A DNA stretch of 64,000 bases, taken from Corbicula japonica. Taxonomy: Eukaryota > Mollusca > Bivalvia > Venerida > Cyrenidae. The notes below the pieces were generated by a model that did no database searches, was not told where the DNA came from, and saw only the letters and a list, made by a program, of their open reading frames with translations. The stretch lies in assembly GCA_038501625.1 (NCBI GenBank), contig JAZAYU010000009.1, positions 11,026,396 through 11,090,395 on the forward strand, read 5' to 3'. Positions 26,546-63,945 of the stretch are shown here, in pieces (positions within the stretch are counted from its first letter, which is position 1; each line of letters starts with the position of its first letter). The translations under genes and the position numbers were made by a program.

Positions 26546-28505
26546 TTTTACTGTTGTCTTTATCTAAAGGAAATGAGAAACAATTGCAAATAACTGAAGG
26601 AAATTTTCTAACTGCTCTGCAGGGTTACCTTTTTACTGGAAACTTGGCAATATGATTTTTACAATATACATTTTTATCATACTTAATACTTCAAGTTTAT
26701 GCTTTTCTATTATATCAAATAATTTGATATACACAGAAAACCACGCATCTATAAGAGCTGTTTCGTTGCTAGGGAAGGGGCCCATGCCCTTAAATGTTTG
26801 GAAAAATTTGACAGTTCCTTAAATGGGGACTGGTTAATTCTTGTCAGATTTTGCATGCTTTGAGAGCAATTTTAGAGGCCATGTGCCTGAACTTAGTGTT
26901 AAAGATGTACCAAACTTAGATTTGATTACATAGTCCTAAGCTTTCTGATTATGTCCATATATAATATTTACATTAGCATTTACATCACTCTATTCAAATT
27001 GTAACAGGGAGGCATCAAGGGATGCAGAAAAATTATTAGGTGTTTTTAAGAATTTGTAATTTCAAAAATACACCGCGGTCTCTTTAAAATGTGGTTTAGC
27101 GAGTTCATCATTGCTAATGAGTTAACAAGTAAATCGCATTATATAATATTTTCAAAAAAATTCGGTAAATGTTCTGATATCCCCGCCCAAAAATCCGTGA
27201 ATTTCCTCCTTGAATGTCTCCCCAAATTCTGATTTTTTTCGATCTAGTCTGAACATAACCTTAAATGTCCGAAATCAGCTTATCCGAATAACTTACTACT
27301 TACGTTAAACTGATTTTAAAAAGACGACATCATTAAGAATCTAACAATATTAAAGACGTGAATTTCTTTATCTGAACATTTTCATTGGAACTCCTATCTT
27401 TCAATTTAAGGACTTGTATTCATTATAAAACTGCAATGGAAATATCTTGGACTACTCCCGCAATTATTTACGGTGTTCCATTAAAAATGCTACCTGTGAA
27501 GATAAAATACGTCACCTTGGAAGAAAGAATAATTTTTGTAGAACTGTTTACTTTTGCAGGAATCGAGGTGAAGGTAAGAGTTTTGCTGTATAAAATTTTC
27601 TAAAATAAGTTCCAACCTTGAATGGAATGAATAACTTAGCGCTAAGAGGGAGTCATTGTAGAATTCAGCCCATGGGCCATGGTCAAAAGCAGCTGACACA
27701 GAACTTTATGCTTATGTAAAGTATCTTGCAATAAATGCTCACCTCAAAATATCAGAAAAGAAAATTGCATTTAAAAAGTTTAAAGTATGATCCGGAATAA
27801 AATATGACACTCTTATAACATATTGTCTAGGATATTTTTTACTGGAGAAAAAGCCAGGAATAAAAATGAACAGACAGTATCTAACGGCATCGTAAGACAA
27901 CTTCTAACAGCCCAACTGTGGGATTCAACAACATATTTAACATGTCAGAGAATTGGAATTGGATCATGATTATAACAAATGAAACGTAGTTAAAGTGTAC
28001 ATGATGTACAATGAACAATAAGATCAACACAATAAATGATGTTGAACACTGATGAATTAAAATTGTTTATTAATTGGCAGAGTTGCATAATTATCCAAAT
28101 ATAGTTACAGAAAGCATAAGCAACTTGTATCAGGCATTTGTAAATTACTTTCAGCAGGATAGAAAGTGCAGTGGGGCGGGGGAGGTAAAATATCCCAAAG
28201 GGAAGTTACTATGATACTATGATTTTAACTCCACAATATCAGGATGAATTAAAGTATAATTTGATTATGAAATACTTGTCACTTTCAATGAACACCCACT
28301 CCAGCACAATTATGAATCCAAATGAATAGTTACTCCCTGTTGGTACATAGTAGTGTCTTTTTAGCTAATATTCTAAAATTGTTATATTCTATAAGCTTGA
28401 TTTAAGTTTTTAAGCATATTACATTAAATTTTTCCTTCTTTTGCAGTAGACATGTGTGTGTAGTGGGTAAGCCAGATTTCTGTGTGAAGTTACTGCAGAA
28501 GGTTC
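26546..28505. promoter_or_regulatory. Divergent region between PMS2 and SLC25A19
   Basis: About 2 kb between two start codons pointing apart. It must hold both promoters and at least one non-coding 5' exon of SLC25A19 (acceptor at 28446). A small open frame at 27385-27603 ends near GAAGGTAAGAG, a possible 5' UTR donor. No TATA box or other element can be assigned with confidence. Confidence 0.4.
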
Positions 28506-28628
28506 ATGGTTGGATATAATCCAGATGTGAAGCTGACAGATAAGGACTATGTTACAGCTGGTGCTATAAGCAATGCCGTGACAAGGGCAGTAACTCAACC
28601 GTTTGATGTCCTGAAGATTAGGTTTCAG
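28506..28628 (+). CDS. SLC25A19: SLC25A19 coding exon 1
   Basis: ATG at 28506; MVGYNPDVKLTDKDYV ... QPFDVLKIRFQ, donor GTAGAT. 41 codons, phase 0. A palindromic MITE starts 31 nt downstream. Confidence 0.95.
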
Positions 28629-30186
28629 GTAGATCTTAGGCTTATTACTACAGTGCCTAAGGTTATAAAACTGAGCATGGAAACCAGTCTCAAATCTCAA
28701 GCATCTGATTCGCTGAAATGGCGGCATTTCAGCCAATCATATGCTTGAGATTTGAGACTGGTTTCCAATATCAGTTTTATAACCTTCAGCCCAGATTTTC
28801 ATTTATGTTTGTTCTTCTACACTTCAATGTAAACATTGGTAAACTCAGGTTACAAATTCTACCATGTTCATTTTATACCTCTGAAGGATATATTTAAGCA
28901 TATTAAACTTAAAAATGTGTATGAATTTAATATCTGTATAATAAGAGGTTATTAACCGGTGTTCAAGGGCCGGGAGGTGATATTGGCCCGGAAGAGCAAT
29001 ATTGGCCCGAGAGCTTTAGCTCGAGGGCCTATGTTGCTCTGCCGGGCCGATATCACCTTCCGGCCCTTGAACACCCATTTATAACCATTTTATTACATGT
29101 GCCGGGCTGATATCAAAGTCTGCCATTTTCATGCTCTTTAATTCATAAATGAACTGAGCACTTGTCTATTCGTTAATTAACTACGTCATGATGAATGCTT
29201 TCGCTACTACGTCATTAAGAGTTTTGTGACGTAATTAAAGATTGTTTACATTTTCAAACTGCAACAGAGGAAGTTGCTGTCAGTTGATTTTTTAATATTT
29301 ATTTGGTTTTAAGTGATTATGTCTTCGAACGATTTGATAAAATTGTGCTGGATATGAGATTGAGAAAATTTGAGTTCTGGAAGTATTTTACAGCGGTATG
29401 GGTATGTAAAGGCTGTTATTTGTGAGTGTTTTATTCTCATAACGCTGCTGGGAGCTTCAATTCAACAAAAACACAATGAAGCATATCTTTTTCAAAGAAT
29501 AATAGGCATAAAGCCTAAAGAAAATATGAAGGAACATGATTCTGGAAATACAGTGCTTTTTGTTCTTGGTTGTCCCCAGGTATGTACAATTTCTCCATGT
29601 TTCTCTTGTCATTTTGTCGCTCTTAGAAATATGTCTCATGTAAGCATGCAAGTTCTTTTTATGCCCCCGAAGGGAGGCATATAGTAATCGGACTGTCCGT
29701 CCGTCCGTCCTAACGTCTGTCCGTCCGAAATAATCTTGTCCTCGCTTCTCCTCTGAAACCGCTTGAGGGATTTCTTTGAAACTTCACAGGAATGTTTGTC
29801 ACCAAGCCTAGTTGTGCATGTCGTCAGGAATTTCTGCTCCGATTATTTTTGGCTGAGTTATGGCCCTTTGAAGCAAAATCTTGTCCTCGCTTCTTCTCCC
29901 AAACCGCTTGAGGGATTTCATTGAAACTTCACAGGAGTGTTTGTCACCAAGCATAGATGTGCATATCCGAAGGAATTTCTGATCGGATTATTTTTGGCCG
30001 AGTTATGGACCTTTTTACCTAACCCTAACCCTAAACCTTAACCCTAAACCCTAACCCTAACGTAAACTGAAATCGCTTGAGGGATTTCATTGAAACTTCA
30101 CAGGAGTGTTTGTCACCAAGACTTGTTATGCATATCCAAAGGAATTTCTGATCGGATTATTTTTGGCTGAGTTATGGGCCTTTTTA

Positions 30187-30222
<36 letters not shown>

Positions 30223-33200
30223 GGTAAATTTTGTTAACGCAATAGAGGTAACATTTTTTTGTCCGATTGTCATGAAATTTGGTCAGGATGTTTGTCCCAA
30301 TGATTTCTTGGACGAGTTTTAATATGGGTCATCAGGGTCCAAAAACTAGGTCACTGTTACTAAAAATAGAATTTTCTTGTTAACACTCTAGCGGTCACAT
30401 TTTTGCTCCGATTGTCATGAAACTTGGTCTGGATGTTTGTCCCAATGAATTCTCGGACGAGTTCGAATAAGGTTCATCCTGGTCCAAAAACTAGGTCACT
30501 GTTACTATAAATAGAATTTTCTTGTTAAAACTCTAGAGGTCACATTTTTGCTCCGAATTATCATGAAACTTGGTCAGGATATTTGTCCCATTTATTTCTA
30601 GGCCGAGTATGAATATGGGTCACCTGATCCCAAAAACTAGGTCACTGTTACTATAAATAGAATTTTTTTGTAAACACTCTAGCAGTCACATTTTTGCTCC
30701 AATTATCATGAAACTTGGTCAGGATATTTGTCCCATTTATTTCTAGGCCGAGTTTGAATATGGGTCACCTGGGTCCAAAAACTAGGTAACTGTTACTATA
30801 AATAGAATTTTCTTGTTAACACTCTAGCGGTCACATTTTTGTTCTGATTGTCATGACACTTGGTCAGGATGTTTGTCCCAATGATTTCTCGGACGAGTTT
30901 GAATATGGGTCATCTGGGTCCCAAAACTAGGTCACTGTTACTTAAAATAGAATTTTCTTGTTAACACTCTAGAGGTCACATTTTTGCTCCGATTGTCATG
31001 AAACTTCGTCAGGATGTTTGTCCTAATGATTTGTCAGACAAGTTCGAATATGGGTCATCTGGGTCCAAAAACTAGATCACTGTTACTAAAAATAGAATTT
31101 TTTTGTTTACACTATAGTGGTCACAATTTTACTCTCAGATTGTAAAGAAACTTGGTCAGGACATATGTCCCAGTTATTAATTGGTTGAGTTTGAATATGG
31201 GTCACCTGGGTTCAAAAACTAGGTCACTGTTACTATAAATAGAAAAATCTTGTCCATGCTGTAAATTTGTTATTTCTCATTGGATTTTAAAATAACTTGG
31301 CTCAAATGTTTACCATGACAAGGTGTACTTTCGCGTACAATACCCATGCCTGTTGGTCCAAGGTCAAGGTCACTGTTACTAAAAATAACATTTTCTTGTC
31401 TTGGCTGTTAATTCCTAATGAATGAAGTGATTTCAAAATAACTTTACAAAAATATTCACCATGACAAAGGGATGTGTTGCTTACAATACCCATGCCTGTA
31501 GGTCAAAGGTCAAGGTCACTGTTACGAAAAATAGCATTTTCTTTTCCAAGCTGTAGATTTGTTGTTTCTTATTGGATTTTAAAATAACTTGATGTAAATG
31601 TTCACCATATCGAGACGTTGCACTCAGGTGAGTGATAAAGGGCCATCATGGACCTCTTGTTCATATTAATATTTAACTTTATTTAACTATATATTTACTA
31701 CAGACTTGAAACATAATTATGATCCTGACATCTTTCACATTATATGCATGCAGTATGCTTCGTCTTCCACAAGCATATTTTTCATTACATATGTTTATTT
31801 ATTACATATGTATACCTATTTGATTTCAAGCTGCATTTCGGGGGCATATGTCAATTCCAGTGACAGCTCTTGTTTAAATATGCTACTTCTTGCATCTAGC
31901 TCCAAAAGACTTGAATGGGACTCGATCGATTCAATTGTCTCCATCTTGAAATTTAAAAGTTCAATCCTGTATCAATGGTTACCATGTGCAAAAAATCGTG
32001 ATACGGGATTTCTGCCCGCGATATCAGGTTTTCGGCCCATGATATCAGGTTTTCGGCCCGCCCTTTATTATGCAAAGTACCCGGGCATTTTGGTCATTAT
32101 TTGTTACTATATTTAGTAACACATGTAATAATGTAGAATACTATGCTATACTTTTATTTGTGCTATTGTTGTGGCATTGACTGTAAAAATCAACTTTCTA
32201 TAGAATTGATCATCACTTCAATATAACACCATATTTTTACTGATCCAGCTCCAAATTGAGCCTTTAAAAAAGACAAGCTCGTCGTCCAAGTATCATAGCA
32301 TCTATCAGGCAGCCAGGTGTATTGTTCGGGAGGAAGGATACAAAGCCCTCTGGAAGGGACATGTTCCTGCTCAGTTCCTGTCTATATCATATGGTGTAAT
32401 TCAAGTAAGACCTTTATTACATATAGATCTAGAAACTGAGTACTTATTAAGCTGTGATGTTGTGAAAGCTGAAGGATACATTAAACATTGTAGATGTGGA
32501 GTTTAAAATGTTCAAAATTTAGAACAGAAATTTACTCTGATTCAGTTTAACTTGCAACTAGTTGTATAAAAGTGTAATATGCATATCAGGAATGACCACA
32601 TCCAGCAGACACAGCCTCCCAACAGTAAGAAAGTCGAGTGGAGAAGAGAGCATGGCTTTACAATAATATGATTCAAAGTAGATGCCACAAACAATCAAAG
32701 AAAGTGAGAACTTGAGGGGTTACTGCCTTGGAACGGTCAGGGGCAAAATAATTTGCCACTTGGGGTTTAAACCAGGTTCTAGGGTGCACCAACCTCACAC
32801 TTGCCCAAACAGGCTCTCATATGAACAAACAAGTACAAGATGTCTTGGTGAAATAATTCCAACCCACCCATCAGCTTAACAATGTTGCATGCAAAAGCAC
32901 ACAAACATACAAAACACAAGAAGCTTATAGCATTGTAAAGCAAAAGGGCTTTATGATCTTACTGAGCCAGATCACCTGGAGTCAAATCAGCAAGAACACA
33001 ATTGCATGGATAAAAAAAATTAATCAAGCTTTTAGGTTCTTTTATAAGATTTCCCCATAAACCTTTATAAACTCTTCAGCCCCTGCCACCGTTGTGCAAC
33101 CAAAGAGGTAAGCATAATGAACAACTGTAGATGAGTAAACCCCCAGGCATGCAGAGAGCTGTAGAATTTCATGTTCTTGTTGAATTTACATAAGGTTTTT

Positions 33201-36200
33201 ACAAAAACATGGTGAAATTAACATTGCCTTTTATTTTCTTACGTTTATAAAATAAATCTCCATAAAAAACTGGCTGTGAATTACCTTGTTGATATTATGA
33301 TTTTAAAGTGCACCTGTTTTTTTAAATTAAATCTGGGTATTGGTGATAAAACTTGAAAACAGTTTTTTCTTAATTTGTGATACCGATAACCTTGTTTCAA
33401 TTCACGCAGCTTAAGTTGAAATGTAACTCAAAGATTTGTGGCCTGATATGTAATTTACTTCTTAAGATATAATACACATAGTAACACTACATTTACCATA
33501 GATTAAAAAAATTAGCTTTTTATATTTTTTTTTTATCTTTGAAATGAACATTTGAATATTAAACAAGTCATGCATTGTTTTCAGGTCAAGACACTATAGT
33601 ATTTTACAGAACATTCATTATTTGTTCAATCCAAGATATAGTTATATTTTTATGCCCCCGGCATCTAGTGATTGAACCGTCCGTCCGTACGTCCGTCCGT
33701 CCGGTTAACATTTTTCGGCAAGTTGGATATTTCTGAATTTCTACAAAGAGCATTGGCATGAAAGTTTACACACTTACTTCACAGTTTACAGGTCATGACC
33801 CTGACAAGTTACATAACTCTGGGTACCTTATTTCTGGTGTTATCTCCCCTTTTTGTACTTAAAAAAATGGTTAACCTGTTTCGGCAAGTTGGATATTTTT
33901 CCATTTCTACAAAGATCATAAGCATGAAAGTTTACAAACTTAATATACAGTGCACAGGGTATGACTTTTAACAAGTTACATAACTCAAGCTATCCTTATT
34001 CGGGGTTTTCTCCCATATTTGTACTTAGAGATAAATGGTTAACATTTTTCGGCAAGTTGGATATTTCTGAATTTCTACAAAGAGCATTGGCATGAAAGTT
34101 TAGACACTTACTTAACAGTTCACAGGTCATGACCCTGACAAGTTACATAACTCTGGGTACCTTATTTCTGGTGTTATCTCCCCTTTTTGTACTTAGAAAA
34201 ATGGTTAACCTGTTTCGGCAAGTTGGATATTTTTCCATTTCTACAAAGATCATTAGCATGAAAGTTTACAAACTTAATATACAGTGCACAGGGTATGACT
34301 CTGACAAGTTACATAACTCTGGCTATCTTAATTCGGAGTTTTCTCCCCAATTTGTACTTAGAGATAAATGGTTAACATTTTTCGGCAAGTTCGATATTTC
34401 TCAATTTCTACAGAGAGCATTGGCATGAAAGTTTACACACTTACTTAACAGTTCACAGGTCATGACACTAACAAGTTACATAACTCTGGGTACCTTATTT
34501 CTGGTGTTATCTCCCCTTTTTGTACTTAGAAAATGGTTAACTTATTTCGGCATGTTGGATATTTTGCAATATCCACAAAGAGATCTGGCTTTAAAGTTTA
34601 CACACATACTTAACAGTGCACAGATGATGACCCTTACAAGTTACGTAAGTCTGGCTACCTTTTTTCTGGGATTATCTCCCCATTTTATACTTGGATATAA
34701 ATGGTTAACTTGTTTTATTTGATTTTTGCCCTTTTTCGCTTAGAAATTAGAATTAAGACTTAGAAATTATGGTTAAAGTTTCAATGTTAGTGTTTTTCTA
34801 AGGTTATCTATAGAAAAGGTTTAAAACAGATGTACTTAACATACTTTGGTGAAAGTGCCTAGTGGTTACTATACTATACTATACTATACTATGCTATGCT
34901 ATGCTATGCTATGCTATGCTATGCTATACTATACGATACGATACGATACGATACGATACGACACCACACCACACCACACCACACCACACCACACCACACC
35001 CCCACCACCACCCCCACACCACCACCACCCCCACCACACCACACCATCTCACACCACACCACCACCACCCCACCACACCACCAACAGTAATACTGTCAAC
35101 AACAATGTCAACAACACCACCAACAACACCGTCAACAACACCACCAACAACTCCGTCAACAACACCACCAAGAACACCGTCAACAACACCACCACCAACA
35201 ACACCACCACCAACAAGAATAGCATCAACAACACCAACAACCAACAACAATAGCATCAACAACACCAACAACTGACAACACCAACAACAACACTGACAAC
35301 TACACCAACAACAACACCCACACCACCAACATTACCAACACCAACAACAATACCAACAACAGCAACAACACCCACACCACCAACAACAGCAACCAGCATA
35401 CCATACCTTACTATACTACACCACACCTCACCACATCACTATAGGTGGGCAGAGATAGTGGGTTGATGGGTGTGGGATCAGGGGTGTATGGACTGGGTTG
35501 TGTAAACCCTCTAAAAAAACTACAATAATAAAGTAACTGTAATTTATTGATTTCCTAACTTGGATTAAGAAACTTTTGTTCATGTATGTGTGTTGGGTGT
35601 CATAAACTCCTGAATCACTCCCCAGTTTAAATGAAGCCCAGTTTTAAATGTGCTTAAATATGACTTGAAATAGTCGAGCATGCAGTCGTTTCCGATTGGC
35701 TCTTGTTATGATAAATTCTTTTCATGTACAGGTTCTGGCACCAGACGGTTATTTTAATTATTTAGAACTAACTTGTGATTTTAGTTGCAGTTTTAACACT
35801 GTGCTATCATTTAAAATTTGTATCGTTAAAAACTTTGCTACCGAGGGCATATGTGTTTTCCGAACACAGCTTCTTGTTCTATTTTGTTATATAAATTTTC
35901 AGATTGTTTATATACACTAGACTTTTGTTTCAGTTTACAACATTTGAACATTTTACAAAGAGTGCCTGGGTGTTACTGCCAGATAGACATGCCGTTGAGC
36001 TGCGTCCTTTCATACACCTGGTGTGTGGTGGCATGGCAGCCACTGCAGCTACTATGGTCATCCAACCATTAGACGTTCTTAGAACAAGATTTGTGGCTCA
36101 GGGAGAACCAAAGGTCAGTGTCAGGCCGTAAAGCTTTACTTCATTTATATCCATGTGTTAGAATCTGTCAGTCAATTTTACACAACCTGTTATCTACTTG

Positions 36201-37634
36201 TATACTTTTTGTGTACTTTTTGCTAATTTGGTGATAATCAATTATTAAACTTAAAATAAAAAATGATATTCCCATTCGTATACATGTATGACTATTATTT
36301 GGGGTTCACAAGTTGTACAACAAAGCTTACAGTCATAAACAGTAATTTTCAAATGTTTCAAATTTGCCAAAATCCATATGTTTATCAGGCCATCTAACCT
36401 TTTTGTAGGTTTATAAGTCATTTTACCATGCTGCCCAATGCATCGCACAGAAGGAGGGTTTACGGGGTTTCTACAAAGGGCTGACCCCAGCAATACTCGG
36501 CACATCACCACAAATGGCATTGAACTTCGGACTCTATGCTCTGCTACAGAATATATGGAATAGTGCTTTTAGCTTTCCAAAACAACATCTTCCAGGTACA
36601 TTTAAGGGTCTGAAAATGCTTCTTTTGACTTGGCGCTTCCCCAAGATAATTCCAAAGTGATTAATTGCACAGGAAATCTTTTACTGTATGACACCTTATA
36701 AGTAAAAACTTTTAAACACAATATCCCAAAATTATTGATATATCTTAGTGATTGCATTTTGAGAATGAAAACTATTTAATCCTAATGAAAAATAAGTCTT
36801 AGTATGTCAGTGCTTCATCACAGTGTCATGTAGTATAGTTTAATCAATTTTTTGACAGGATATGTTAGAATTAGATTCAGATTAGCAAACACATCTGTGC
36901 TGTATTAGGATCTAAACTTTTCACATTTATATTCTGCAAGTAATTGCTGACCAATCAGCAAACAGTTTAGATCCAGAGCAAATGTCAATGCATCACACAT
37001 ATTATAATCTAATATGTCAATGATATACAAGCTGGGCTGGATCTATAATATTAGCCCATGATAAAATATGTAAATATGGACTAAAGAGTAAGGATAAAAG
37101 GCACCCTCTAAATTACTTTACTTATTTCATATACAATTTGCTGTATTTATTTATTTCATACATATGGATACTTGAATAAAAGGTATTTTTATTCAAATCC
37201 ATAATAACTAAATGAAGAAACAAAAATTATATCTAAAATTATCACCAATATCACCTGTTCAAACTCTCAAGTTCTGTTTTAAACACTATGTTAATCTTTT
37301 TATAACTTGATTCTTGTTTCTGTGTTTAGGAGCTGCTGAAAGCTTTATCTGTGGATCCGGCTCTGGTTTTCTGAGCAAGCTTATGATCTACCCTCTTGAC
37401 TTGGTGAAAAAACGTCTCCAGATCCAGGGATTTGAAGAAGCCAGGCAGCCATTTGGAAAGGTCACTAAGTACAGTGGACTGGTTCACTGTTTCAAGAAAA
37501 TGATTCAAGAAGAAGGTTATTTAGGACTATATAAAGGATTGAGTCCCAGTCTGTTGAAAGCAGTTTTTGTTTCAGGGACTATGTTTTGTGTTTATGATCA
37601 GATATGTTTCCTATTGGCATTAAAGAATAGATGA
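28506..37634 (+). CDS. SLC25A19: SLC25A19 mitochondrial thiamine pyrophosphate carrier (5 coding exons)
   Basis: Inner-membrane carrier that imports thiamine pyrophosphate into mitochondria. Exons 28506-28628, 32249-32404, 35934-36113, 36409-36595 and 37330-37634 join in frame to 316 aa (human protein 320). Three carrier repeats are visible, with signatures PFDVLKIRFQ (~residue 32), PLDVLRTRF and PLDLVKKRLQ, each followed by an acidic-Gly motif (EEGYKALWKG, KEGLRGFYKG, EEGYLGLYKG). The start MVGYNP, the block WKGHVPAQFLSISYG and RTRFVAQGEPK are specific to SLC25A19 within the carrier family. An acceptor CTTCTTTTGCAG at 28446 implies a spliced 5' UTR. It diverges from PMS2, the two ATGs being about 2 kb apart. 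A possible AATAAA is at 38022. Introns carry a palindrome, a Helitron-like element and a compound microsatellite. Confidence 0.96.
28659..28786. repeat. Palindromic MITE, copy 2
   Basis: Same family, AAGGTTATAAAACTGAG to CAGTTTTATAACCTT, 31 nt after the SLC25A19 exon 1 donor. Confidence 0.85.
28943..29100. repeat. GGCCCG-rich palindrome
   Basis: ATTAACCGGTGTTCAAGGGC recurs inverted as GCCCTTGAACACCCATTTAT around a centre GAGCTTTAGCTC. Related sequence (GGTTTTCGGCCCGCCCTTTA) at about 31975-32130 suggests that this is the left end of a larger, internally invaded element. Confidence 0.65.
29659..31659 (+). mobile_element. Helitron-like element with GTCC tract and tandem cores
   Basis: Head palindrome TATGCCCCCGAAGGGAGGCA, (GTCC)n at 29695-29728, two to three ~170-bp units (29740-30230), then about eight ~136-bp units (30230-31260) keyed by AACTAGGTCACTGTTACTA. 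It closes with a hairpin (GGGCCATCATGGACC) and CTCTTG|TT. Lies in SLC25A19 intron 1. Confidence 0.7.
30016..30228. repeat. Two telomere-like CCCTAA tracts
   Basis: 30016-30062 and 30186-30226 are runs of CCCTAA/CCCTAAA (TTAGGG on the other strand), each at the same place in consecutive tandem units of the Helitron-like element. Confidence 0.85.
32249..32404 (+). CDS. SLC25A19: SLC25A19 coding exon 2
   Basis: Acceptor TGATCCAG, donor GTAAGA. Encodes LQIEPLKKTSSSSKYHSIYQ ... LWKGHVPAQFLSISYGVIQ. 52 codons, phase 0. Confidence 0.95.
32577..32960. repeat. Dispersed ~370-bp repeat, copy 2
   Basis: Fuller match to the 13622 copy (TTTAAACCAGGTTCTAGGGT, CACCAACCTCACACTTGCC), in SLC25A19 intron 2. 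Confidence 0.7.
32961..33649. other. SLC25A19 intron 2 sequence, nothing recognised
   Basis: AT-rich, no repeat or coding signal seen. Confidence 0.5.
33651..34735 (+). mobile_element. Helitron-like element with ~167-bp tandem array
   Basis: Head TATGCCCCCGGCATCTAG, (CCGT)n at 33688-33702, then six to seven units opening GTTAACNTNTTTCGGCAAG at about 33703, 33870, 34038, 34204, 34372, 34537 and 34704. Units alternate between two types (ATTTTTCGG and CTGTTTCGG). The 3' end is not clear. Open frames here are repeat translations. Confidence 0.6.
34868..35450. repeat. Compound pentanucleotide and CAA/CCA microsatellite
   Basis: Consecutive blocks (ACTAT)n, (GCTAT)n, (ACGAT)n and (ACACC)n to about 35000, then CCA- and AACA(C/A)C-type repeats to about 35400 and a return to ACTATACTACACC. 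Long open frames on both strands are low-complexity artefacts. Confidence 0.95.
35934..36113 (+). CDS. SLC25A19: SLC25A19 coding exon 3
   Basis: Acceptor TTTGTTTCAG, donor GTCAGT. Encodes FTTFEHFTKSAWVLLPDRHA ... QPLDVLRTRFVAQGEPK, the second carrier signature. 60 codons. Confidence 0.95.
36409..36595 (+). CDS. SLC25A19: SLC25A19 coding exon 4
   Basis: Acceptor TTTTTGTAG, donor GTACAT. Encodes VYKSFYHAAQCIAQKEGLRG then FYKGLTPAILG. 187 nt, phase 0 in and 1 out. Confidence 0.95.
36850..37092. repeat. TTAA-MITE copy, decayed
   Basis: Retains GTTTAGATCC arms in SLC25A19 intron 4. Confidence 0.5.
37330..37634 (+). CDS. SLC25A19: SLC25A19 coding exon 5 (terminal)
   Basis: Acceptor TGTGTTTAG. 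Encodes AAESFICGSGSGFLSKLMIY, PLDLVKKRLQIQGFEEAR and YKGLSPSLLKA, ending LLALKNR with TGA at 37632-37634. Confidence 0.96.
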
Positions 37635-55000: not shown

Positions 55001-58000
55001 GCACTAAGCTTATGAGGATGGCTAGTTTGAGCAAACCTATCTATCTGTTGCACTTTGTTCCAGGATCATTTGCTTTGATGTTTTCAAACATAAAATACAA
55101 TTTAAATAAAGAAAACTAGGTGGGCGTCTGTTGAACACTTGTGTCACCCTTGGGTACTTGGTCAGAAAAAAACCCTGCAAGTTTAATGAAAAATAAAAAA
55201 TGGCAATATTAGAGTAAGTGTTAAGTTTTTCTGACAAAATCCAAGTACAAAAAGGAGCCTAACCGTCATATGTGACCTTGACCCAAAGATGTTGGCTTCA
55301 TCACGAGTTAAAGAATTGCCATATTATGATATCAGCAGATTAAGGATGAAAGCATAATATGTAGGAGAAGTATTCAAAAAACAGTCACATTATAAGGAAA
55401 GTATTTTGAGAACTTTTTCTTAAGAAAGGCCTGTCCAAATAATGTGATAAAATCACCAAAATGATGTCATTGTTCTTGTTGTAACATTACACACTTGCAA
55501 TTATGGCATGTTGTTCTGATAAATAAAGTAGTACTTCTGGAAGTTTTCTATCGTCATCATTTGGATATTCACCATTACATCATAATGTAGCAGTTTTCCC
55601 CGAAGAAGATTTTTAATCTTTACCCCCTGGTAATGAGTGTTATATATCACTCAAAATTACTTAGTAAAATCCATTTTATATAAATGCTTTTGCATTTTCA
55701 GATACTACTGCCTGGCAGCAGCTTCAGCACTTGTGAAATATCTTGAGTTTATACAGAACACAAGCTATGCCCCTGCCTCTCTGAAGATTGTCTTCAAAGG
55801 AAGTGAAAATACTACTATGATAGGTAGGCACATTGCTTTATTACTTAAAACTGTATGCAAGAATATAAAACCTTAGATTGGAGATAAGTCTGAAACTTCA
55901 AGCATCTGATTTGCTGAAATGTGGACTCAAATTTTAAGCCTCTGAAAGGCTGAAATGATTTCAGCCAATCACATGTTTGAGATTTGATATGGCAAGGGCT
56001 TTGCACAATTAATCTGAAATCGGCCAATAATTTTATCAGTCTGAAAACCATAGTTATTGACAACCTGGGTTACTGGCTGATAACCATGTGTATTGGCATA
56101 TAGTTCTTGGCGGTGTTGAATATGGTTTCTGTTGGGAAAATTCTGGAACCATGAACATGTGGAAGACGTTTGGTTTAAAAAATTTCTTATCACTGAGCAT
56201 AAAGATGATGAAAATGATGATAAAGATTACTGTCTTGGTTTTTAGACCAGAAGATAAGTTGGTATAATTTTGATGTTTGCTGGCTATTTAAAAACATATA
56301 CACTTTTTTTATTTACCCATGTTCCATTATCATTTTTGACACTATGTATTGGTCAGAAAAATGTTGGTTCAGTCATACGAAATTTATTGGTTTGTCGGAC
56401 CAAATGTGTCAGAACTCCTTCACCATGACTTGGTTTCCTTACATAGATTTTGCTTTATGTTAATGTACGCCTTTAATTGATAAAGGTAAGTACTAATATT
56501 TCCTTATTATCAGCGACCATTGTTATTAATTACAACAACTAGAAGTACAGTTGAAACTTTCCATAAAAAATTTGAACCTAGAAATGGCATCCAAACATTG
56601 ACTGAAATTTGCTTTATGTGGATGAAAATTGTATAAGTAGTGTCACTAATAGACAGAGTTAGCCAAGACTTCAAAATTATTTGCATGATCTTTGTCACTT
56701 TCATTTCTATAACTGTTTTAACCTGATCAAATAGCATGTGTCAGACTATCACCCCTCCCTCTTAGGATGTTTATAAACATCTGGCATATTTGGGAATACA
56801 CATGTCGCTGTCAAAAATTCACATGACGATTACCCGGGTATAATATATTTAAAAGTATGAAAGTATCTACAGCAAATTTTATTAAATTTATTACTTTCTA
56901 TTTTTCACAATATGATTGACCAGTTAATCGATCACATACCCAATATTAACAGATGTGTCTACTGCCAAGAATCTGGAATTGCTGCAGAATCAGAGAGATC
57001 CCAGAAGTGACCACACCTTGTATGGAATACTCAACTACACCAAGACTGTGGGCGGAGCTAGACTTCTTCGATCCAACATCTTGCAGCCACCATCAGGTAA
57101 ACTAGGAAAGAAAGTTTCCATTTAGGTGAAGGCATATCTTGGGACTGAATATCTTATAATCCCTCTCTATTTACAAGAAATACCTATGTCTACCATTGTG
57201 GAAGATTTTAGTATTAGAAACATTGTTAAAGTTCCATAGTGTGCTTGCAAACACTGCAAAGTATATGGTTGCTGTTTTTTAGAATTTAAAAAATTACCCT
57301 TTCAGATCTGGCCACTATCACACTGAGACAAGATGTTGTTGCAGAGTTGACAGAAAAGTCTGAGATATTCTATAACCTTGGAGCAGTTATCAGCAGATTT
57401 CTCGACATTGATCATCTGCTGTCATTGTGTGTTCAAGTACCGAAACAAGAGAACATTAAGACAGCCGAGAATAAGATTACAAACATGTTGTATCTGAAGC
57501 ACACTCTTGAACTTGTTGCTCCCCTCCGGGAGGCTCTAGCCAACTGTGAGAATCCTCTCCTTAAGGCCTCTTACAAGGTACTGTGTTTTGTTAACCTGTT
57601 ACTTCATATATATGGGTTTTATCACATATGTGAGCAGTGTAGATCAATTCCAGCCAGCACACCAGCGCAGTCTGATCAGGATCTACATTGTTTGCTTCTT
57701 GGTAAGAAATAACCCAATGAATTGAAAAAAAGCAAACAGAAAATCAGGCTATGGGATAACAATATTATCCCATGGACTACATGATTATTCTGTAAACCTA
57801 TAAATGTTTGCAAATACAATATTTCCTGTTGTCTTTCGATAAACATATTCACTATTACTAAGCAACTGCAAAATTTCAAATATGTCATAGCAAAATCTTT
57901 TTATAAGGCTTAACAAAAATGGATATTCAGATTCTCTCTGATATGTTAGTTAGATCATCAATGCCAATTTCTAGTTGTGTCAATTGTTTTTATTGATGAA

Positions 58001-61000
58001 GGTAAAAAATACATTTATTTCCATTACTGTTGCAAAACAGTTGGAATTGCTTACATTTTTCACATAAATGTACTGGCAATTCATTTTCACACAATTGTTA
58101 CTGCTAGTTACTTGAATGGTTTATTAGAATTTATAAGAAAGCATATTATATATACTTATTATAAGTGAGACCCTACACTGTTTGATGTTAATTCATCAAC
58201 TGCCTGTGATATTCATTAACTCTAGTAGACTCTGGTAATGTAATCATTTAAAAGTTAATGTTATCATTTAATGAGGGCTTGTTTTCACTTGCAATCCAAA
58301 AGTAAGATTTTGGCATTGGCTTACACATGCTTGAGTTCATGCTGTACCTGACAAAATATTGCAAGCTGTAATGATTCTTTTCTATCATTTTGAATTGAGG
58401 CATTTACTGTTCAAAGCTTTAAGTAGTTGAAATTCTTGTGTATAAAGCGATACTCACATAAAACTATTGCAGGTTCTGGAAGACCCACGGTTTACGGTAA
58501 TGCTGGACAAGATCAACTGCATCATCCATGAGGAGGCCAGGTACCAAAAGGGAACACTCAACATGAGGTCGCAAAAATGCTTTGCTGTTAAGGTAACATT
58601 ATTAACAAGGTTTTCTTTTGTTCAGTGACATCTGATCAGGATCTAAACTGTTTGCTTTTTGATTTCTTAGGTTATCTCAGACCAAAATGCGACCAGTGCA
58701 GATCCTGATCAAATGGCACAGAAGGCCAGCTAATCTGGATCTACACTGGTTGCACATGCGTAAAAAGGCGTATATATGGAGGAAAGGGTTAAGTGGTCTT
58801 GATGTTTTATTTGTTTTATCAGTTTAATACTTAAAGGAAAGAATAAAACTCTTGTAACACACTTAACTTCATTACCATTCTGTAAGATTACAATAAGTAC
58901 TGAATAAATGTACTAACATTCCTGGAAAAAGGTGTCCTAAAAACTGTTTTATATGAAAATATATAGTCTGTCTGTAAACAATTCTTTACTTGATGTAATA
59001 TTGATTTGGACTGTTGGAAGACTTGAATTCACATTTCACAGCCACAGATGAATGGTATGTTATTTCTTTGTTACATATTCACACTTGTTAAACATGTTGT
59101 CTTGTTTGGTTTTATCATTTTTTATGGGTTCTTTTAAGATTTTGGTACTTACTGCATAAATTTTCTAAGAATATTGCAGATAATTCACTTAATATTTTCT
59201 TGTTTGAACAAATAAGCATAAACAATATTAAAATAAATTGTTGAACTGACAGTTTGTTGAACAGGTATTTCTGTTGAATTAAAAAAATTCTGGAAAGCCC
59301 ATTGGTAATCCGCAGAGTTGGAAGTGCTCACTTCTATTTTCAATTCACAGCTGATTTTGATGTAACCTGTTTTGCTCATTATGTAGTGTTTTGAATCCAA
59401 GATAATATGTTGTGATGTTTCAAACTGTTGGTGAATGTCTGCATAAATATGAAATAAAACTTTAAAAATTATAACAACAAAAATCAAACTAAAACAAAAT
59501 TGAATAATGATATATATTTGTAGATGCCCAAATGTGATCTGAATCGAGGCAATAATGATACCTTTATACCTTCAGCATATATTTTTTTGGATATTTGCAG
59601 GACTGCTAGACATTTCGAGAAAGACATACACAGAAATAGTTGATGACATAACAAGTAAGCAATATTAAAAACTCCAATGACAAAAAATAAACACTATTTT
59701 TAAGCATCTTGCAGACTGATGACATAACAGTTATTTCATATGAATTCTGTCAGAAATTAATTAAATTCATAATGATATGAAAAACATTAGATTTGTTTTG
59801 TTTCGTTTAAAATTAGTGTGAATCCTTCTGGGCTCCACACACTTCAAAACAACCTAAATGTTTTCCATACCATAATGGATGTATACACAAAATTATATTT
59901 CTTCAAAATAAGCAAGAAAAATGACTACTACTTATTTATTTCATTACAAACTGATTAAATGTCCTTTAAGCTGTGGAAGCCTGCTCTCAAAAGACTGTTT
60001 TCTATAACTACATTATGATTGCAAGGTTGCACAGGTTCATAGCTTATAAAATTCGTCTAGAAAATGTCATTTAAAACTAAAAAATAACTTGGTAAAAAAT
60101 GAAGTGAGTCTAGTGAATATATAATGAACGATGCCTGGACATAAATTGTAAATATTTGGTATACAGATTTAGTGGAGCAGATGGCAACCATGTACAACCT
60201 GCCACTGAAGATATTCTATAGCAATAGTCGGGGGTTTCACATGCAGATGTATGGGGAGGGGTACACAACTGACAATCTGCCAGGGGTCTTCATCAAAGTC
60301 ACCAAGTTCAAGAATACATTCAGCTTTACCACAGCAGATCTGGTAAGGTTAATTTATGTTTGGTGAGTTTTTATTTTATTGTAGATTTGCTAATTAGGCT
60401 TATGCATGAATTTGAAATGGAAGCAAAATATGCATAATTGTGTATCAAAAACTGTTGTTTTTTTGCTCAAAATTTAATACTATTAAAGTAAGATTTTCCA
60501 CACGAGTTAAAATTTTGTTGTTTAAAAAAGTGAAATATGCATAAAAGGAATAGTAGCCCCCACCCCCCACCCCTACTCAAACACTGCCACAAACAGAAGA
60601 AAAGAAAGCATGAGTTTATAATATTGTATCAAATAGACACCACAAACAAAAGTACAAGTTACCTTGGTGAATTAACATCAACCCATCCATCTACAAGACA
60701 ATTTTGCATGCAGAAGCTTACAAACATACACACATAATAAGCTAATGACATTGACAAGCAAAATAGATAGGTAATTGATGGACTTATAGATGGACAAAGT
60801 CATCTATTTGGCATAAGCCAGCCATTAAGTGCATTAAGTTTTGTACAAAACAAGATAGCTGAAAACAGCTGATAAACTTTATTAATAGCCCAAAACTGAT
60901 GTTTTATTATAAATTTGATTTCAGATCAAGATGAATGGTATGTTATTTTGTTACATAATCTGTTAAAATGTATTTTGCCTTGTAAAAAAATGTGGAAAAA

Positions 61001-63945
61001 TGTTATTATAAATGCTGATTTTATTTTGGATATAGAGATGTTTTAAGACAGCGTGGTCCAAACTAAAGCAACAACCGTGAGCAAAAACATCTGAATAAAG
61101 ATTACATTGTAAATTTTTTCAAGTGTATTTCAGTCTGAATAGAAATCATCTGCCAACAAAACCATTTTCTTACACTCATATGGAGGTCATTATGTACAAG
61201 TTAGGTTGTAACTGCTAAACCTTTAACCCTTTCCTTGATATATACACATTTTTACGCATGTGCGACCAGTGTAGATTCAGATCAGTCGGCACATCTGTGC
61301 CGTCTGATCAGGATCTGCACTGGTCGCATTATGGTCAGAAATATCTTAATGAATCAAAAAGCGAACAGTGTATTATTAGCTAGGGTCTTTGCCAGATGTG
61401 CTGGCTGATCTGGATCTAAACTGTTCGCCCTAGCAATAAAGGTGTATCTGTACAGGAAAGGGTTAAGCTTTAGACACAATTATTATTATATAATTAGTTA
61501 ACACAATTGTTGCTTTTACAATTGTTTTGATATAGTTTGAAGGCACCAGCTGTAATCTCAGCCAGTCAGATCCTTGAGATTTGAGACTGGTTTCCTTTCT
61601 CAGTTTTATAACCTTGGGGCATAGTCTGTTTACTCACCACCTGCTCACCACTTACTCTTCTCTTAATTTTTACAGGTCTATTAGTGTAAATAACTCAATC
61701 TTTTTCAATGCCTGTTATATCAAAATATGATTGTTATAAATCTAACAAATTATCATAAGTTTTGAACCTAGTGAAGTTAACAAGAGCAAGAATGGGAAAT
61801 GGGTGGAGGTAATGTTTGTTTTTATGATTTTGTAGTATTTTAACCCTTACTACGCAGATACGCCTTAACTCCATAGATACACCTTTACCCCATAGATACA
61901 ACTTCTCTTCATAGATACTCCTTTATGGCATAGGCTTACAGTGAAGATCCAATAGTTACATCTGTCCCATAGGATCAAGATAGATCTATACTGTTAACTC
62001 ATTGGTCAGAAACAACCTAACGAATCTAAAGGCTGACAGTGTAGATTCTGATCAGATGGCATGGATGTGCTGGCTGATCTGAATCTACTCTGTTTGCCCA
62101 TGTGATGATGGTTTTATGTATGGAGTTAATGGTTTAGATTACATGAGAGTTTGGTTACATGAGAGTTTGTTACGATTTCTTCAGACAGAGTGAAAGAATC
62201 ACTTCATGAGATCTACATGATGACAAGTATGTAAGTATAAGACTTGTTACAAATGTATTTAATCAACACAAAAGCTAAAGTAATTCCATAATCACAGTAA
62301 TGAAGGGTTATTTCTGCCAACCATATCATCATAAGTTTGCTTTTTATAACCTTCATGGTACTGTGATATGATTATTTTGGGTGGGTTTATATTTCGTGTA
62401 TTATTAGCTAGGGTCATTGCACCAATTTAAACCCCAGTATAATAACACCATGTAATAATTTTGACTTAATAGAAAATTACCATTGCTCATATTTATTTAT
62501 GTTGATATATCATTTGGCACAAAAATATGTACATGTATCTGCAAAATTAAATGATACTGTAGTAGTTCATTTTGATGGCACTAATTTTTTGTGTACAGAT
62601 ATTGATGATATTTTACATAGACATAAACTGATGCCTATGTCATGATATTTTTATGACATCATAAGGCATGATAAAGCTTTTTCTAATGTTTTGAATTTGT
62701 ATTTTATTTCTCAATATGATATGCACTAAAATTAACCCGTGCTTATTTAAACAGTACCATTAGTGAGGCACATATCATTGCGCAATAAGAAGATCTGTCA
62801 CCACATACTGACATGGAGAAATTTTACTATCACGGAGGACTGTAACGTTCGTTGCATTGTTGTGTTGTATAACTGTAAACCGCTGTAATGCATATGATGG
62901 GTGATTTGTGATTAATATATGAAAATTGATTAATTGGGAACATTTCGAAAAATTCAATTATTGATAGAAGTCTCAATTTTGAAATTTCCTGAATTTTGTT
63001 AACCCTTACTCCATGAGATATGGCTGTTATTCTAAGGGAGATAGCGTAGATCCAGATCAGCTGGCAGAACCATGTTGTCTGATCAGGATCTACATGTACA
63101 CTGTTCAGTTTTTGATTCAAACAATGTAGATCCTGATCAGGATCTGCTGGGTTTTTTTTATTCGTTTGGTTATTTCTGACCAAGAATCAACCAGTGAAGA
63201 TTCAGATCAGAAAGTAAGGATGTTCCAGCAGATCTGGATCTACACTTTTCACATATGCCATTAAACCCATATAAATGTTGGAGTAAAGGGTCAAGATGTT
63301 GATTTTGTGCTTGTGTTACAGAGTGATGACAGAGTTACTGAACAACATCAGAGATGACATAGGAGCTCTGTACAAGCTGACTGAGACTGTCGCCACAGTA
63401 GACATGTTACTAGCCTTTGCTCATGCTTGTACCCTCTCTGAGTTTGGTAGGTACATGTCAGTGATGGGACCACAATTCATAAGTATCTGTACACATGTAA
63501 GGATAAAAGCACTGATTTTAGACCACAGATGGGCACTAATTAAAAAAAATATCTATCACATGTATAATATATTTGAATGTAAACCCTGCCAGTCTGCCAC
63601 CTTTCAAAGATTGGTATATTTGTTGTGAAATAACACCCATGCTATTGTTTTTGATATCAAAGAAATTTTGCAAGACTCGAAACTATTGGTAAAGTTATCC
63701 TAATATGTTCCCTGTGTCTTCGTAGTGTGATAAAATCACTTTTGGAATCAGGCTAGAATATTTACACTTATGTGGACTGCAGTGGTTTTATTAACACTGG
63801 TCACATGAAAATAAAACAGACAAATCACATGAACCACTTGCTTTTTTTAGTGAGACCTGAGTTTACAGACACATTAGCAGTAAAACAAGGTCGGCATCCA
63901 ATACTGGAGAGGATTTCGTTAGAGCCTCCTGTCCCAAATATTATT
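45984..63945 (+). CDS. MSH4: MSH4 meiotic MutS homologue, N-terminal and core domains (17 exons, 3' end off window)
   Basis: MSH4 pairs with MSH5 to form a clamp that stabilises crossover intermediates at meiosis; it lacks the mismatch-reading domain. Coding exons: 45984-46002, 46541-46790, 49566-49795, 52743-52891, 53129-53252, 54741-54807, 55702-55823, 56953-57096, 57306-57577, 58473-58592, 59042-59054, 59601-59654, 60167-60342, 60925-60937, 62185-62230, 63322-63446, 63851-63945. All are GT-AG and every phase joins, giving 673 codons. Family landmarks in order: YNFGLLETP near the N-terminus; a Ser/Thr/Pro-rich stretch (~60-165); [124 protein letters not shown]. The Walker A/B ATPase domain should follow past the right edge. 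The 5' UTR appears spliced (TTCTTGCAG at 45964). Confidence 0.96.
46541..46790 (+). CDS. MSH4: MSH4 coding exon 2
   Basis: Acceptor TGTTTGCAG, donor after TCATG (GTACTT). Encodes [20 protein letters not shown] and a low-complexity Ser/Thr/Gly region. 250 nt, phase 1 in and 2 out. The start is secure; the donor rests on phase and is less certain. Confidence 0.82.
46950..47330 (+). repeat. Short Helitron-like or minisatellite element
   Basis: Starts with a small hairpin (GTAGCCCTTT...AAAAGGCGCTAC) and has two ~150-bp units (AAATGTTGGCTGTAACTTCGCC). 3' end not resolved. MSH4 intron 2. Confidence 0.5.
47697..49543 (+). mobile_element. Helitron-like element ending 22 nt before MSH4 exon 3
   Basis: Head palindrome TATGCCCCCACAAAGTGGGAG, CCGTACGTACGTCC tract, then ~146-bp units (CTTGTGGCGTCAACTCCTCC) in a ~756-bp higher-order block present twice. 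Terminal hairpin GTGTCCTGAGGACAC, then AGTCTAG|T (CTAG at 49540-49543). Confidence 0.78.
49566..49795 (+). CDS. MSH4: MSH4 coding exon 3
   Basis: Acceptor AACATTTTCAG, donor GTAAGG. Encodes [20 protein letters not shown] ... [20 protein letters not shown] and DRSTLV: a Ser/Thr/Arg-rich disordered region. A Helitron-like element ends 22 nt before the exon. Confidence 0.85.
50090..50164. repeat. TTAA-MITE fragment (right end)
   Basis: GGATGTGCTGGCTGATCTGG to GAGGAAGGGGTTAA. Confidence 0.75.
50211..52242. mobile_element. CAGGG-ended DNA transposon, 5-bp TSD, copy C
   Basis: Termini CAGGGTTTTTTTTTAAGGA / TTAAGGAAAAAACCCCTG, flanked by GCAAT on both sides; subterminal GGGGAAGACGCTGG / CCAGCGTC. 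2032 bp, no transposase frame recognised, in MSH4 intron 3. Confidence 0.75.
52743..52891 (+). CDS. MSH4: MSH4 coding exon 4
   Basis: Acceptor GAATATTAG, donor GTTAGC. Encodes [20 protein letters not shown] ... [15 protein letters not shown], strongly matching MSH4. Confidence 0.96.
53129..53252 (+). CDS. MSH4: MSH4 coding exon 5
   Basis: Acceptor TATTCCAG, donor GTACAA. Encodes [20 protein letters not shown] ... [12 protein letters not shown]. Confidence 0.96.
53500..54000 (+). repeat. Tandem units related to the Helitron-like cores
   Basis: About three ~165-bp units (CTTCTGTGNGNAACTCCTAC ... TTTCACAGAA) preceded by a G-rich GGGTGGGCGGGCG tract. No clean termini. MSH4 intron 5. Confidence 0.6.
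54251..54489. repeat. TTAA-MITE copy, near-complete
   Basis: TTAAACCTTTCCTGTATAG to ATATCAAGGAAAGTGTTAA. Confidence 0.8.
54741..54807 (+). CDS. MSH4: MSH4 coding exon 6
   Basis: Acceptor TGTGTTTCAG, donor GTAATC. Encodes [20 protein letters not shown]. 67 nt, phases fit both neighbours. Confidence 0.93.
55702..55823 (+). CDS. MSH4: MSH4 coding exon 7
   Basis: Acceptor GCATTTTCAG, donor GTAGGC. Encodes [20 protein letters not shown] then [20 protein letters not shown]. Confidence 0.96.
55862..55990. repeat. Palindromic MITE, diverged copy 4
   Basis: Keeps CAAGCATCTGATTTGCTGAA and TTTCAGCCAATCACATG; in MSH4 intron 7, about 40 nt after the exon 7 donor. Confidence 0.6.
56953..57096 (+). CDS. 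MSH4: MSH4 coding exon 8
   Basis: Acceptor TATTAACAG, donor GTAAAC. Encodes [20 protein letters not shown] then [20 protein letters not shown], the MutS core. Confidence 0.96.
57306..57577 (+). CDS. MSH4: MSH4 coding exon 9
   Basis: Acceptor CCCTTTCAG, donor GTACTG. Encodes [20 protein letters not shown] ... [20 protein letters not shown]. 272 nt. A MITE copy starts 14 nt into the next intron. Confidence 0.96.
57591..57745. repeat. TTAA-MITE left part, 14 nt after the MSH4 exon 9 donor
   Basis: TTAACCTGTTACTTCATATA to AAAGCAAACAG; second half missing. Confidence 0.7.
58473..58592 (+). CDS. MSH4: MSH4 coding exon 10
   Basis: Acceptor CTATTGCAG, donor GTAACA. Encodes [20 protein letters not shown] then [14 protein letters not shown]. 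40 codons, ends in phase 0. Confidence 0.96.
58618..58792. repeat. TTAA-MITE right part, ~25 nt after the MSH4 exon 10 donor
   Basis: GTGACATCTGATCAGGATCT to TATGGAGGAAAGGGTTAA. Confidence 0.8.
59042..59054 (+). CDS. MSH4: MSH4 coding exon 11: 13-nt microexon
   Basis: CCACAGATGAATG between CATTTCACAG and GTATGT. Exon 10 ends in phase 0 and exon 12 needs phase 1, so a piece of 3n+1 nt is required. This one gives [16 protein letters not shown], the same length as human AVRSNINEFLDIARR. Inferred from phase and alignment, not from transcripts. Confidence 0.72.
59601..59654 (+). CDS. MSH4: MSH4 coding exon 12
   Basis: Acceptor ATATTTGCAG, donor GTAAGC. Encodes [17 protein letters not shown], a highly conserved MSH4 block. 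54 nt. Confidence 0.95.
60167..60342 (+). CDS. MSH4: MSH4 coding exon 13
   Basis: Acceptor GGTATACAG, donor GTAAGG. Encodes [33 protein letters not shown] and [16 protein letters not shown]. Confidence 0.96.
60531..60790. repeat. Dispersed ~370-bp repeat, copy 3 (shortened)
   Basis: GTGAAATATGCATAAAAGGA then AAGTACAAGTTACCTTGGTG; MSH4 intron 13. Confidence 0.65.
60925..60937 (+). CDS. MSH4: MSH4 coding exon 14: 13-nt microexon
   Basis: ATCAAGATGAATG between GATTTCAG and GTATGT. Encodes IKMN plus one base; spliced context TADL-IKMN-D-RVKESL equals human SADLIKMNERCQESL. Exons 13 (phase 0) and 15 (needs phase 1) require it. Confidence 0.88.
61223..61466. repeat. TTAA-MITE copy, near-complete
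   Basis: TTAACCCTTTCCTTGATATA to GTACAGGAAAGGGTTAA. Confidence 0.85.
61549..61616. repeat. Palindromic MITE, right half, copy 5
   Basis: CAGCCAGTCAGATCCTTGAG to CTCAGTTTTATAACCTT; left arm missing. Confidence 0.65.
61840..62133. repeat. TTAA-MITE copy, diverged
   Basis: TTAACCCTTACTACGCAG, with three partial tandem copies of CATAGATAC(A/T)CCTTTA, to GTATGGAGTTAATGG. Confidence 0.65.
62185..62230 (+). CDS. MSH4: MSH4 coding exon 15
   Basis: Acceptor TTTCTTCAG, donor GTAAGT. Encodes [14 protein letters not shown], aligned with human RCQESLREIYHMTY. 46 nt. Confidence 0.9.
62999..63294. repeat. TTAA-MITE copy, expanded
   Basis: TTAACCCTTACTCCATGAG to GGAGTAAAGGGTCAA, with an extra internal arm (~296 bp). 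Ends 27 nt before the MSH4 exon 16 start. Confidence 0.75.
63322..63446 (+). CDS. MSH4: MSH4 coding exon 16
   Basis: Acceptor TGTGTTACAG, donor GTAGGT. Encodes [20 protein letters not shown] then [20 protein letters not shown] copy ends 27 nt upstream. Confidence 0.96.
63851..63945 (+). CDS. MSH4: MSH4 coding exon 17 (last in window)
   Basis: Acceptor CTTTTTTTAG, donor GTAAGA. Encodes [20 protein letters not shown] then [11 protein letters not shown]. The ATP-binding exons should follow. Confidence 0.94.

What the first reader, a model, noticed from the sequence alone, without database searches (positions are those of the whole stretch)
59042..60937. Two 13-nt microexons in MSH4 that share the same junction sequence
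Exons at 59042-59054 and 60925-60937 are both 13 nt, both phase 0 in and phase 1 out, and both end in ATGAATG|GTATGTTATTT (18 identical bases). Similarity continues into both downstream introns (TTGTTACATA, TGTTAAA, CTTGT). Each is needed to keep the MSH4 frame. This looks like duplication of a microexon with its donor, or copying of one onto the other, inside one gene. If the two can swap or be skipped together, residues between the core and clamp regions would change.
Basis: partly seen in the sequence, partly recalled or inferred. Interest (0 to 1): 0.75.

Follow-up and report, generated by a model that had tools for sequence, protein, structure and literature searches.

The report
Twin microexons flanking the MSH4 clamp
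A clam's meiosis gene MSH4 contains two 13-letter exons, one at each edge of its DNA-clamp domain; they look alike at one end, but both appear to be old, separate and needed parts of the gene, not a recent copy of one another.

Summary
Both 13-nt exons (59042-59054, 60925-60937) have GT-AG borders, phase 0 in and phase 1 out, and keep the MSH4 frame. They share 20 identical bases; this 20-mer occurs only at these two places in the 1.07-Gb assembly. Similarity continues about 45 nt into both downstream introns, above Markov controls, and is absent upstream.

Duplication of a whole microexon is not supported. The two 4-residue blocks (PxIN|G and IK[L/M]N|D) are separate, conserved MSH4 positions across animals. 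Annotation errors at these blocks in coral, sea anemone, sea cucumber, tubeworm, snail and clams point to small exons there, so both probably predate the cnidarian-bilaterian split. Most of the exonic identity follows from the encoded residues. The intronic remainder may be a short local copy or chance; about even.

Added here: the microexons sit at the two edges of Pfam MutS_IV (clamp). Because length and phase match, skipping one microexon plus the two exons between would remove the clamp in frame (81 codons); skipping either or both microexons alone breaks the frame. No clamp-less MSH4 was seen among 127 homologues. No RNA of this species was examined.

The parts
59042..59054 (+). microexon 1 (m1), 13 nt, phase 0 in / 1 out, encodes PQMN + first base of G; just before the helix entering the clamp
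60925..60937 (+). microexon 2 (m2), 13 nt, phase 0 in / 1 out, encodes IKMN + first base of D; near the start of the helix leaving the clamp
59046..59065 (+). copy 1 of the shared 20-mer AGATGAATGGTATGTTATTT (9 exonic, 11 intronic bases)
60929..60948 (+). copy 2 of the shared 20-mer
59055..59105 (+). start of the intron after m1, similar to that after m2 with gaps
60938..60983 (+). start of the intron after m2
58473..58592 (+). MSH4 exon C (120 nt), ends CFAVK, phase 0
59601..59654 (+). MSH4 exon D (54 nt), [18 protein letters not shown], phase 1-1, between the microexons
60167..60342 (+). MSH4 exon E (176 nt), clamp strands, phase 1-0
62185..62230 (+). MSH4 exon F (46 nt), joins m2

Best explanation
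These are two separate, old, constitutive 13-nt microexons of MSH4, one at each edge of the clamp domain (MutS_IV). Each supplies the start of one of the two antiparallel helices that carry the clamp, and each must be included to keep the reading frame (shown from sequence; constitutive use is inferred). Their shared length and phase are inherited features of two different splice positions, probably older than the cnidarian-bilaterian split (inferred from annotation errors in relatives, not from their DNA). Most of the exonic identity is forced by the encoded residues (Q/K-M-N-G/D) and the phase-1 end. The extra match in the first 45 or so intronic bases is most simply a short local copy of one donor region onto the other in this lineage (template switch or micro-conversion); that step is inferred, at about even odds with chance.
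For: Gene model with GT-AG borders in 10 of 10 exons. Both blocks are conserved at separate positions in the 120 listed MSH4 proteins of 810 hits (N of block 1 in 106 of 120; I 113, K 109 and N 116 of 120 for block 2). Same-species contrasts: Nematostella P0015 has PHIN, P0046 lacks it with odd residues in its place; Mya P0003 has IRMN, P0040 and P0126 lack it (together with exon F). Block 2 is also replaced in Porites lobata P0032, Holothuria P0033, Pomacea P0087 (block 1 and the end of exon C too) and Ridgeia P0124; Mercenaria P0002 and Mactra P0030 continue past m2 as NGML.. and NGMS, which fits a GTATG donor. A pattern count over all 127 proteins finds block 2 absent in 9: these 8 and P0039, whose block is intact but follows E instead of D. 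6 of 6 listed 'lgn' proteins (contigs 2.7-5.4 kb, too short for this gene's introns, hence probably cDNA) contain both blocks. A spliced query matches the genome only at this locus and leaves only the microexons uncovered (12 of 13 bases each). Intron similarity above Markov controls.
Against: No DNA or RNA of relatives could be read, so ancient exon borders are inferred from annotation errors. For block 1 the errors are few: 2 of 127 (P0046, P0087), plus P0041, which keeps block 1 and lacks exon D. A first automatic anomaly score did not single out the two blocks. Against real sequence the intronic match is less extreme: 5 of 4000 random window pairs and 2 other pairs of 1326 GTATGT sites do as well or better. 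The match has mostly gaps, few substitutions, as a gap-optimised chance alignment would. If P0002 is a plain read-through, the Mercenaria m2 intron diverges after about 8 bases, so a copy would have to be recent, yet the copies already differ by several gaps.
Confidence: 0.75

Rival explanations
1. The junction similarity is chance plus constraint: both exons must end in ATG-AAY-G, both use a GTATGT donor, and AT-rich intron sequence supplies the rest.
For: Exonic part largely forced by residues; relatives already have M at both blocks (PNMN and IKMN in Ruditapes, Mercenaria and Mactra). Two other pairs of 1326 score higher and 5 of 4000 random window pairs reach the score; from +12 on, 1 of 12000 Markov pairs reaches it. 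Exon B's donor resembles m2's at 12.0 and m1's at 8.0. Gap-rich alignment.
Against: From +7, 0 of 12000 Markov intron pairs, and 0 of 2000 Markov genes, reach it; best of 36 pairs of nine donors. The composite pattern occurs only here in 1.07 Gb, though it was chosen from here.
Confidence: 0.4
2. Both introns carry the same U-rich splicing enhancer next to a weak GTATGT donor, selected to define very short exons.
For: Both introns are T-rich after +6; both donors are GTATGT.
Against: The match is a specific string, not just T-richness; no other pair of the nine donors scores above 12.0; Mercenaria's m2 read-through does not keep it.
Confidence: 0.1
3. Recent duplication of one microexon with its donor inside the gene.
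For: 20-nt identity and matching phase.
Against: Blocks are distinct and conserved in animals; no upstream similarity; small exons implied at both places in cnidarians and bilaterians.
Confidence: 0.04

Closest known systems
Small conserved microexons (1-15 nt), as catalogued in plants (PMC8831610; start of abstract and passages seen)
   Same: Very short, conserved, encode part of a protein domain, often missed by annotation
   Different: Animal meiotic gene; two of equal length and phase at the two borders of one domain. Terms MutS and MSH: 0 occurrences in that paper's main text
Neuronal SRRM3/4-dependent microexons of animals (PMC12626424, PMC8797185; search listing with start of abstract)
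   Same: Size class
   Different: No TGC within 30 nt upstream of either acceptor; frame-required; germline-type gene (recalled)
Tandem duplicated, mutually exclusive exons (recalled)
   Same: Two look-alike exons of equal length and phase in one gene
   Different: Two other exons lie between, both are needed together, and they encode different conserved positions
Plant MSH7, a MutS homologue with a highly reduced clamp (PMC12292046, passages seen)
   Same: Shows that a MutS homologue can have a reduced clamp
   Different: Separate gene, not a splice form; here no clamp-less form was seen

Membership tests
microexon | internal exon of at most 51 nt (1-15 nt for the smallest class; start of abstract of PMC12409088 and passage of PMC8831610) | tested here: met
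   13 nt each with AG/GT borders
microexon | inclusion in mRNA | not testable with these tools
   No RNA of this species; both blocks present in 6 of 6 listed short-contig 'lgn' proteins of other species
MSH4 | MutS II, III, IV, V domains and best match to MSH4 | tested here: met
   87% identity to Ruditapes MSH4-like; the four Pfam domains were scanned on that Ruditapes protein, not on the window's own
neuronal SRRM-dependent microexon | UGC close upstream of the acceptor (recalled) | tested here: not met
   weak test, four of the eight other exons examined lack it too
mutually exclusive duplicated exons | either exon alone gives an open frame | tested here: not met
   dropping m1 or m2 alone gives a stop
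mutually exclusive duplicated exons | homologous exon sequence along the whole exon and flanks | tested here: not met
   similarity begins inside the exon, none upstream
intragenic conversion / template-switch copy | tract shared by two sites in one lineage and absent in sister lineages | not tested
   No relatives' DNA reachable; only Mercenaria read-through residues

The most novel reading that the evidence does not exclude
The two matching microexons make the MSH4 clamp a removable module: splicing C to m2, or m1 to F, drops exactly 81 codons in frame and leaves one microexon as the seam, and recombination between the 20-mers would do the same in DNA. Inverted repeats in the two outer introns could help loop the module out. 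A clamp-less MSH4 could then be made as a regulated form.
Probability: 0.05. Interest if true: 0.7.

Novelty: new member of a known kind. Interest (0 to 1): 0.33.

Why it matters
Two frame-critical 13-nt exons at the edges of one domain of a meiotic crossover gene, probably kept since early animals, would be a clean case of long-lived microexons outside the neuronal set and a repeated trap for gene annotation: 9 of 127 MSH4 proteins here are lost, replaced or read through at one of these points. The matched phases also define a domain that splicing could in principle remove in frame, which is easy to test.

Tried and rejected
A block-anomaly score over the alignment ranked naturally variable loops first and did not isolate the microexon blocks. 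The cases were then picked by eye; a pattern count over all 127 proteins returned the same block-2 set plus P0039 (intact, different context). For block 1 it returned P0041 and P0046 and passed P0087, whose odd residues happen to fit the loose pattern.

Clamp-less isoforms: by interval, none among the 120 listed homologues (shortest is Argonauta P0041, which lacks exon D only); by listed Pfam domains, 24 of 24 hits to a join-specific search carry PF05190, including the 7 new proteins (only 28 candidates were scored). 690 of the 810 hits were not visible.

Retrocopy or second gene copy: none found by DNA (4 candidates scored); the protein search for paralogues did not complete. A repeat element as source of the intron match: none found; one search is insensitive, since it did not find even the m2 copy. 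One search used a pattern with one T too many and found one of the two copies; one search corrects it.

The AlphaFold model of Ruditapes MSH4 has mean pLDDT 58.8; only the clamp part (blocks of 76 to 90 from residue 491 to 600) was used, and no fold search was run. No solved MSH4 was among the 31 PDB sequences matched.

Papers: no paper in the library held both MSH4 and microexon, none microexon and bivalve, none all five copying terms. Searches listed 2 and 1 papers and one search listed 8 of 114, none of the 8 with MSH4; none of these was opened.

Full report
What was checked. The window lies in a 1.07-Gb assembly (G000, contig 9). Ten exons from 56953 to 63945 join in one frame, 10 of 10 with GT-AG borders. 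Further MSH4 exons match upstream to 49567 clearly and to 46540 weakly (35% identity, E 0.001), and downstream to about 79.7 kb in window numbering.

The two exons. m1 is CCACAGATGAATG and m2 is ATCAAGATGAATG. They share AGATGAATG and the next 11 intronic bases, 20 in all. Counted from the first codon of exon C, the frame stops at codon 43 without m1, at codon 124 without m2, and at codon 43 without both. Of 14 possible frame-keeping exons of up to 60 nt between C and D, five have a GTAA, GTAG, GTAT or GTGA donor; two of these are m1 and its 7-nt sub-exon starting at an internal AG, and m1 is the one whose product matches the MSH4 family. m2 contains the same kind of internal AG (read directly from the sequence).

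Is the similarity more than chance? For the intron alone, starting after GTATGT, the anchored alignment scores 19.5; 0 of 12000 Markov pairs reach it, extrapolated p about 3e-5. Starting at +9 it is 0 of 12000 (about 8e-5) and at +12 it is 1 of 12000 (about 3e-4). It is the best of 36 pairs of nine donors; exon B's donor resembles m2's at 12.0 and m1's at 8.0. With real sequence as control it ranks third of 1326 pairs of GTATGT sites, below one pair from the abundant repeat and one of unknown kind, and 5 of 4000 random window pairs reach it. With the exonic part, 0 of 2000 Markov genes reach the blastn score. The 20-mer and the intron composite each occur twice in the genome, both sites here; these patterns were chosen from these sites, so the counts show uniqueness, not a p-value. 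Upstream of the acceptors there is nothing.

Are they duplicates? In the 120 listed MSH4 proteins (of 810 hits) the residues at m1 are mostly P or S, then a variable residue, I and N, before G or E; at m2 mostly I-K-M/L-N before D or E. These are different positions of the protein, present together from cnidarians and sponges to mammals. In several annotated proteins one block is lost or replaced by odd residues. Block 1: Nematostella P0046, with intact neighbours (the other Nematostella record, P0015, has the block), and Pomacea P0087, where the end of exon C is altered as well. Block 2, with intact neighbours: Porites lobata P0032, Holothuria P0033, Pomacea P0087 and Ridgeia P0124; and Mya P0040 and P0126, where exon F is lost as well (P0003 of the same species has both). 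Mercenaria P0002 and Mactra P0030 continue past m2 as NGML.. and NGMS, which fits a GTATG donor; P0030 also lacks exon F. Argonauta P0041 joins PNIN to the exon after D, which fits the phase-1 end of block 1. These are the errors that unrecognised tiny exons produce. That makes 2 of 127 proteins with block 1 altered, 6 of 127 with block 2 lost and 2 of 127 reading through it, 9 proteins in all because P0087 has both; the block-2 set was picked by eye and then matched by a pattern count. 6 of 6 listed proteins from short 'lgn' contigs contain both blocks, which suggests inclusion in mRNA in those species. I conclude that both exons are old and separate.

What then explains the match? Ruditapes, Mercenaria and Mactra already have M-N at both blocks, so ATGAAYG at both ends probably predates this species. 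The intronic part remains: a short copy in this lineage, or chance. If P0002 is a plain read-through, the Mercenaria m2 intron differs from the one here after about eight bases, so intron sequence turns over quickly and an old copy would be gone; but the copies here already differ by several gaps. I leave it near even odds.

What the exons do. Pfam MutS_IV covers residues 497-588 of Ruditapes MSH4; the residues at m1 are 495-498 and at m2 579-582. In the predicted model of that protein, confident in this part, m1 lies just before helix 499-525 and m2 near the start of helix 576-610, the two arms that carry the clamp strands. m1+D+E and D+E+m2 are each 243 nt, so C-m2-F and m1-F joins stay open and lack 81 codons. 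No homologue seen shows such a product: 120 by interval, 7 more by their listed Pfam domains. So this is a possibility, not a finding.

Verdict.

Noticed in passing
58621-58793 and 61223-61467: Inverted copies of an abundant repeat lie in the introns just outside m1 and m2; cofold -255 against -176 kcal/mol apart, duplex over 178 nt. They could loop out m1-D-E-m2 (256 nt) and favour a circular RNA. The repeat core has 59 matches in the window and is in 6 of 14 MSH4 introns examined, so the placement may be chance.
   Followed up: partly
15973-26563, - strand: Open frames that resemble PMS2 ([12 protein letters not shown]..., [21 protein letters not shown]...), so a second mismatch-repair-type gene may lie near MSH4 (name recalled, not searched).
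   Followed up: no
28488-37634, + strand: Open frames that resemble a mitochondrial carrier gene (SLC25 type) between the two (name recalled, not searched).
   Followed up: no
34840-35466: Simple-repeat stretch giving long T/H/P/N-rich open frames.
   Followed up: no
59042-59054 and 60925-60937: Both microexons contain an internal AG six bases in, so a 7-nt in-frame version that loses two residues is possible for each.
   Followed up: no
P0002 (Mercenaria isoform X2): An annotated isoform extends m2 by 48 nt in frame (NGMLKYQKVLQKKFFKAY), either an annotation error or a second donor downstream.
   Followed up: no
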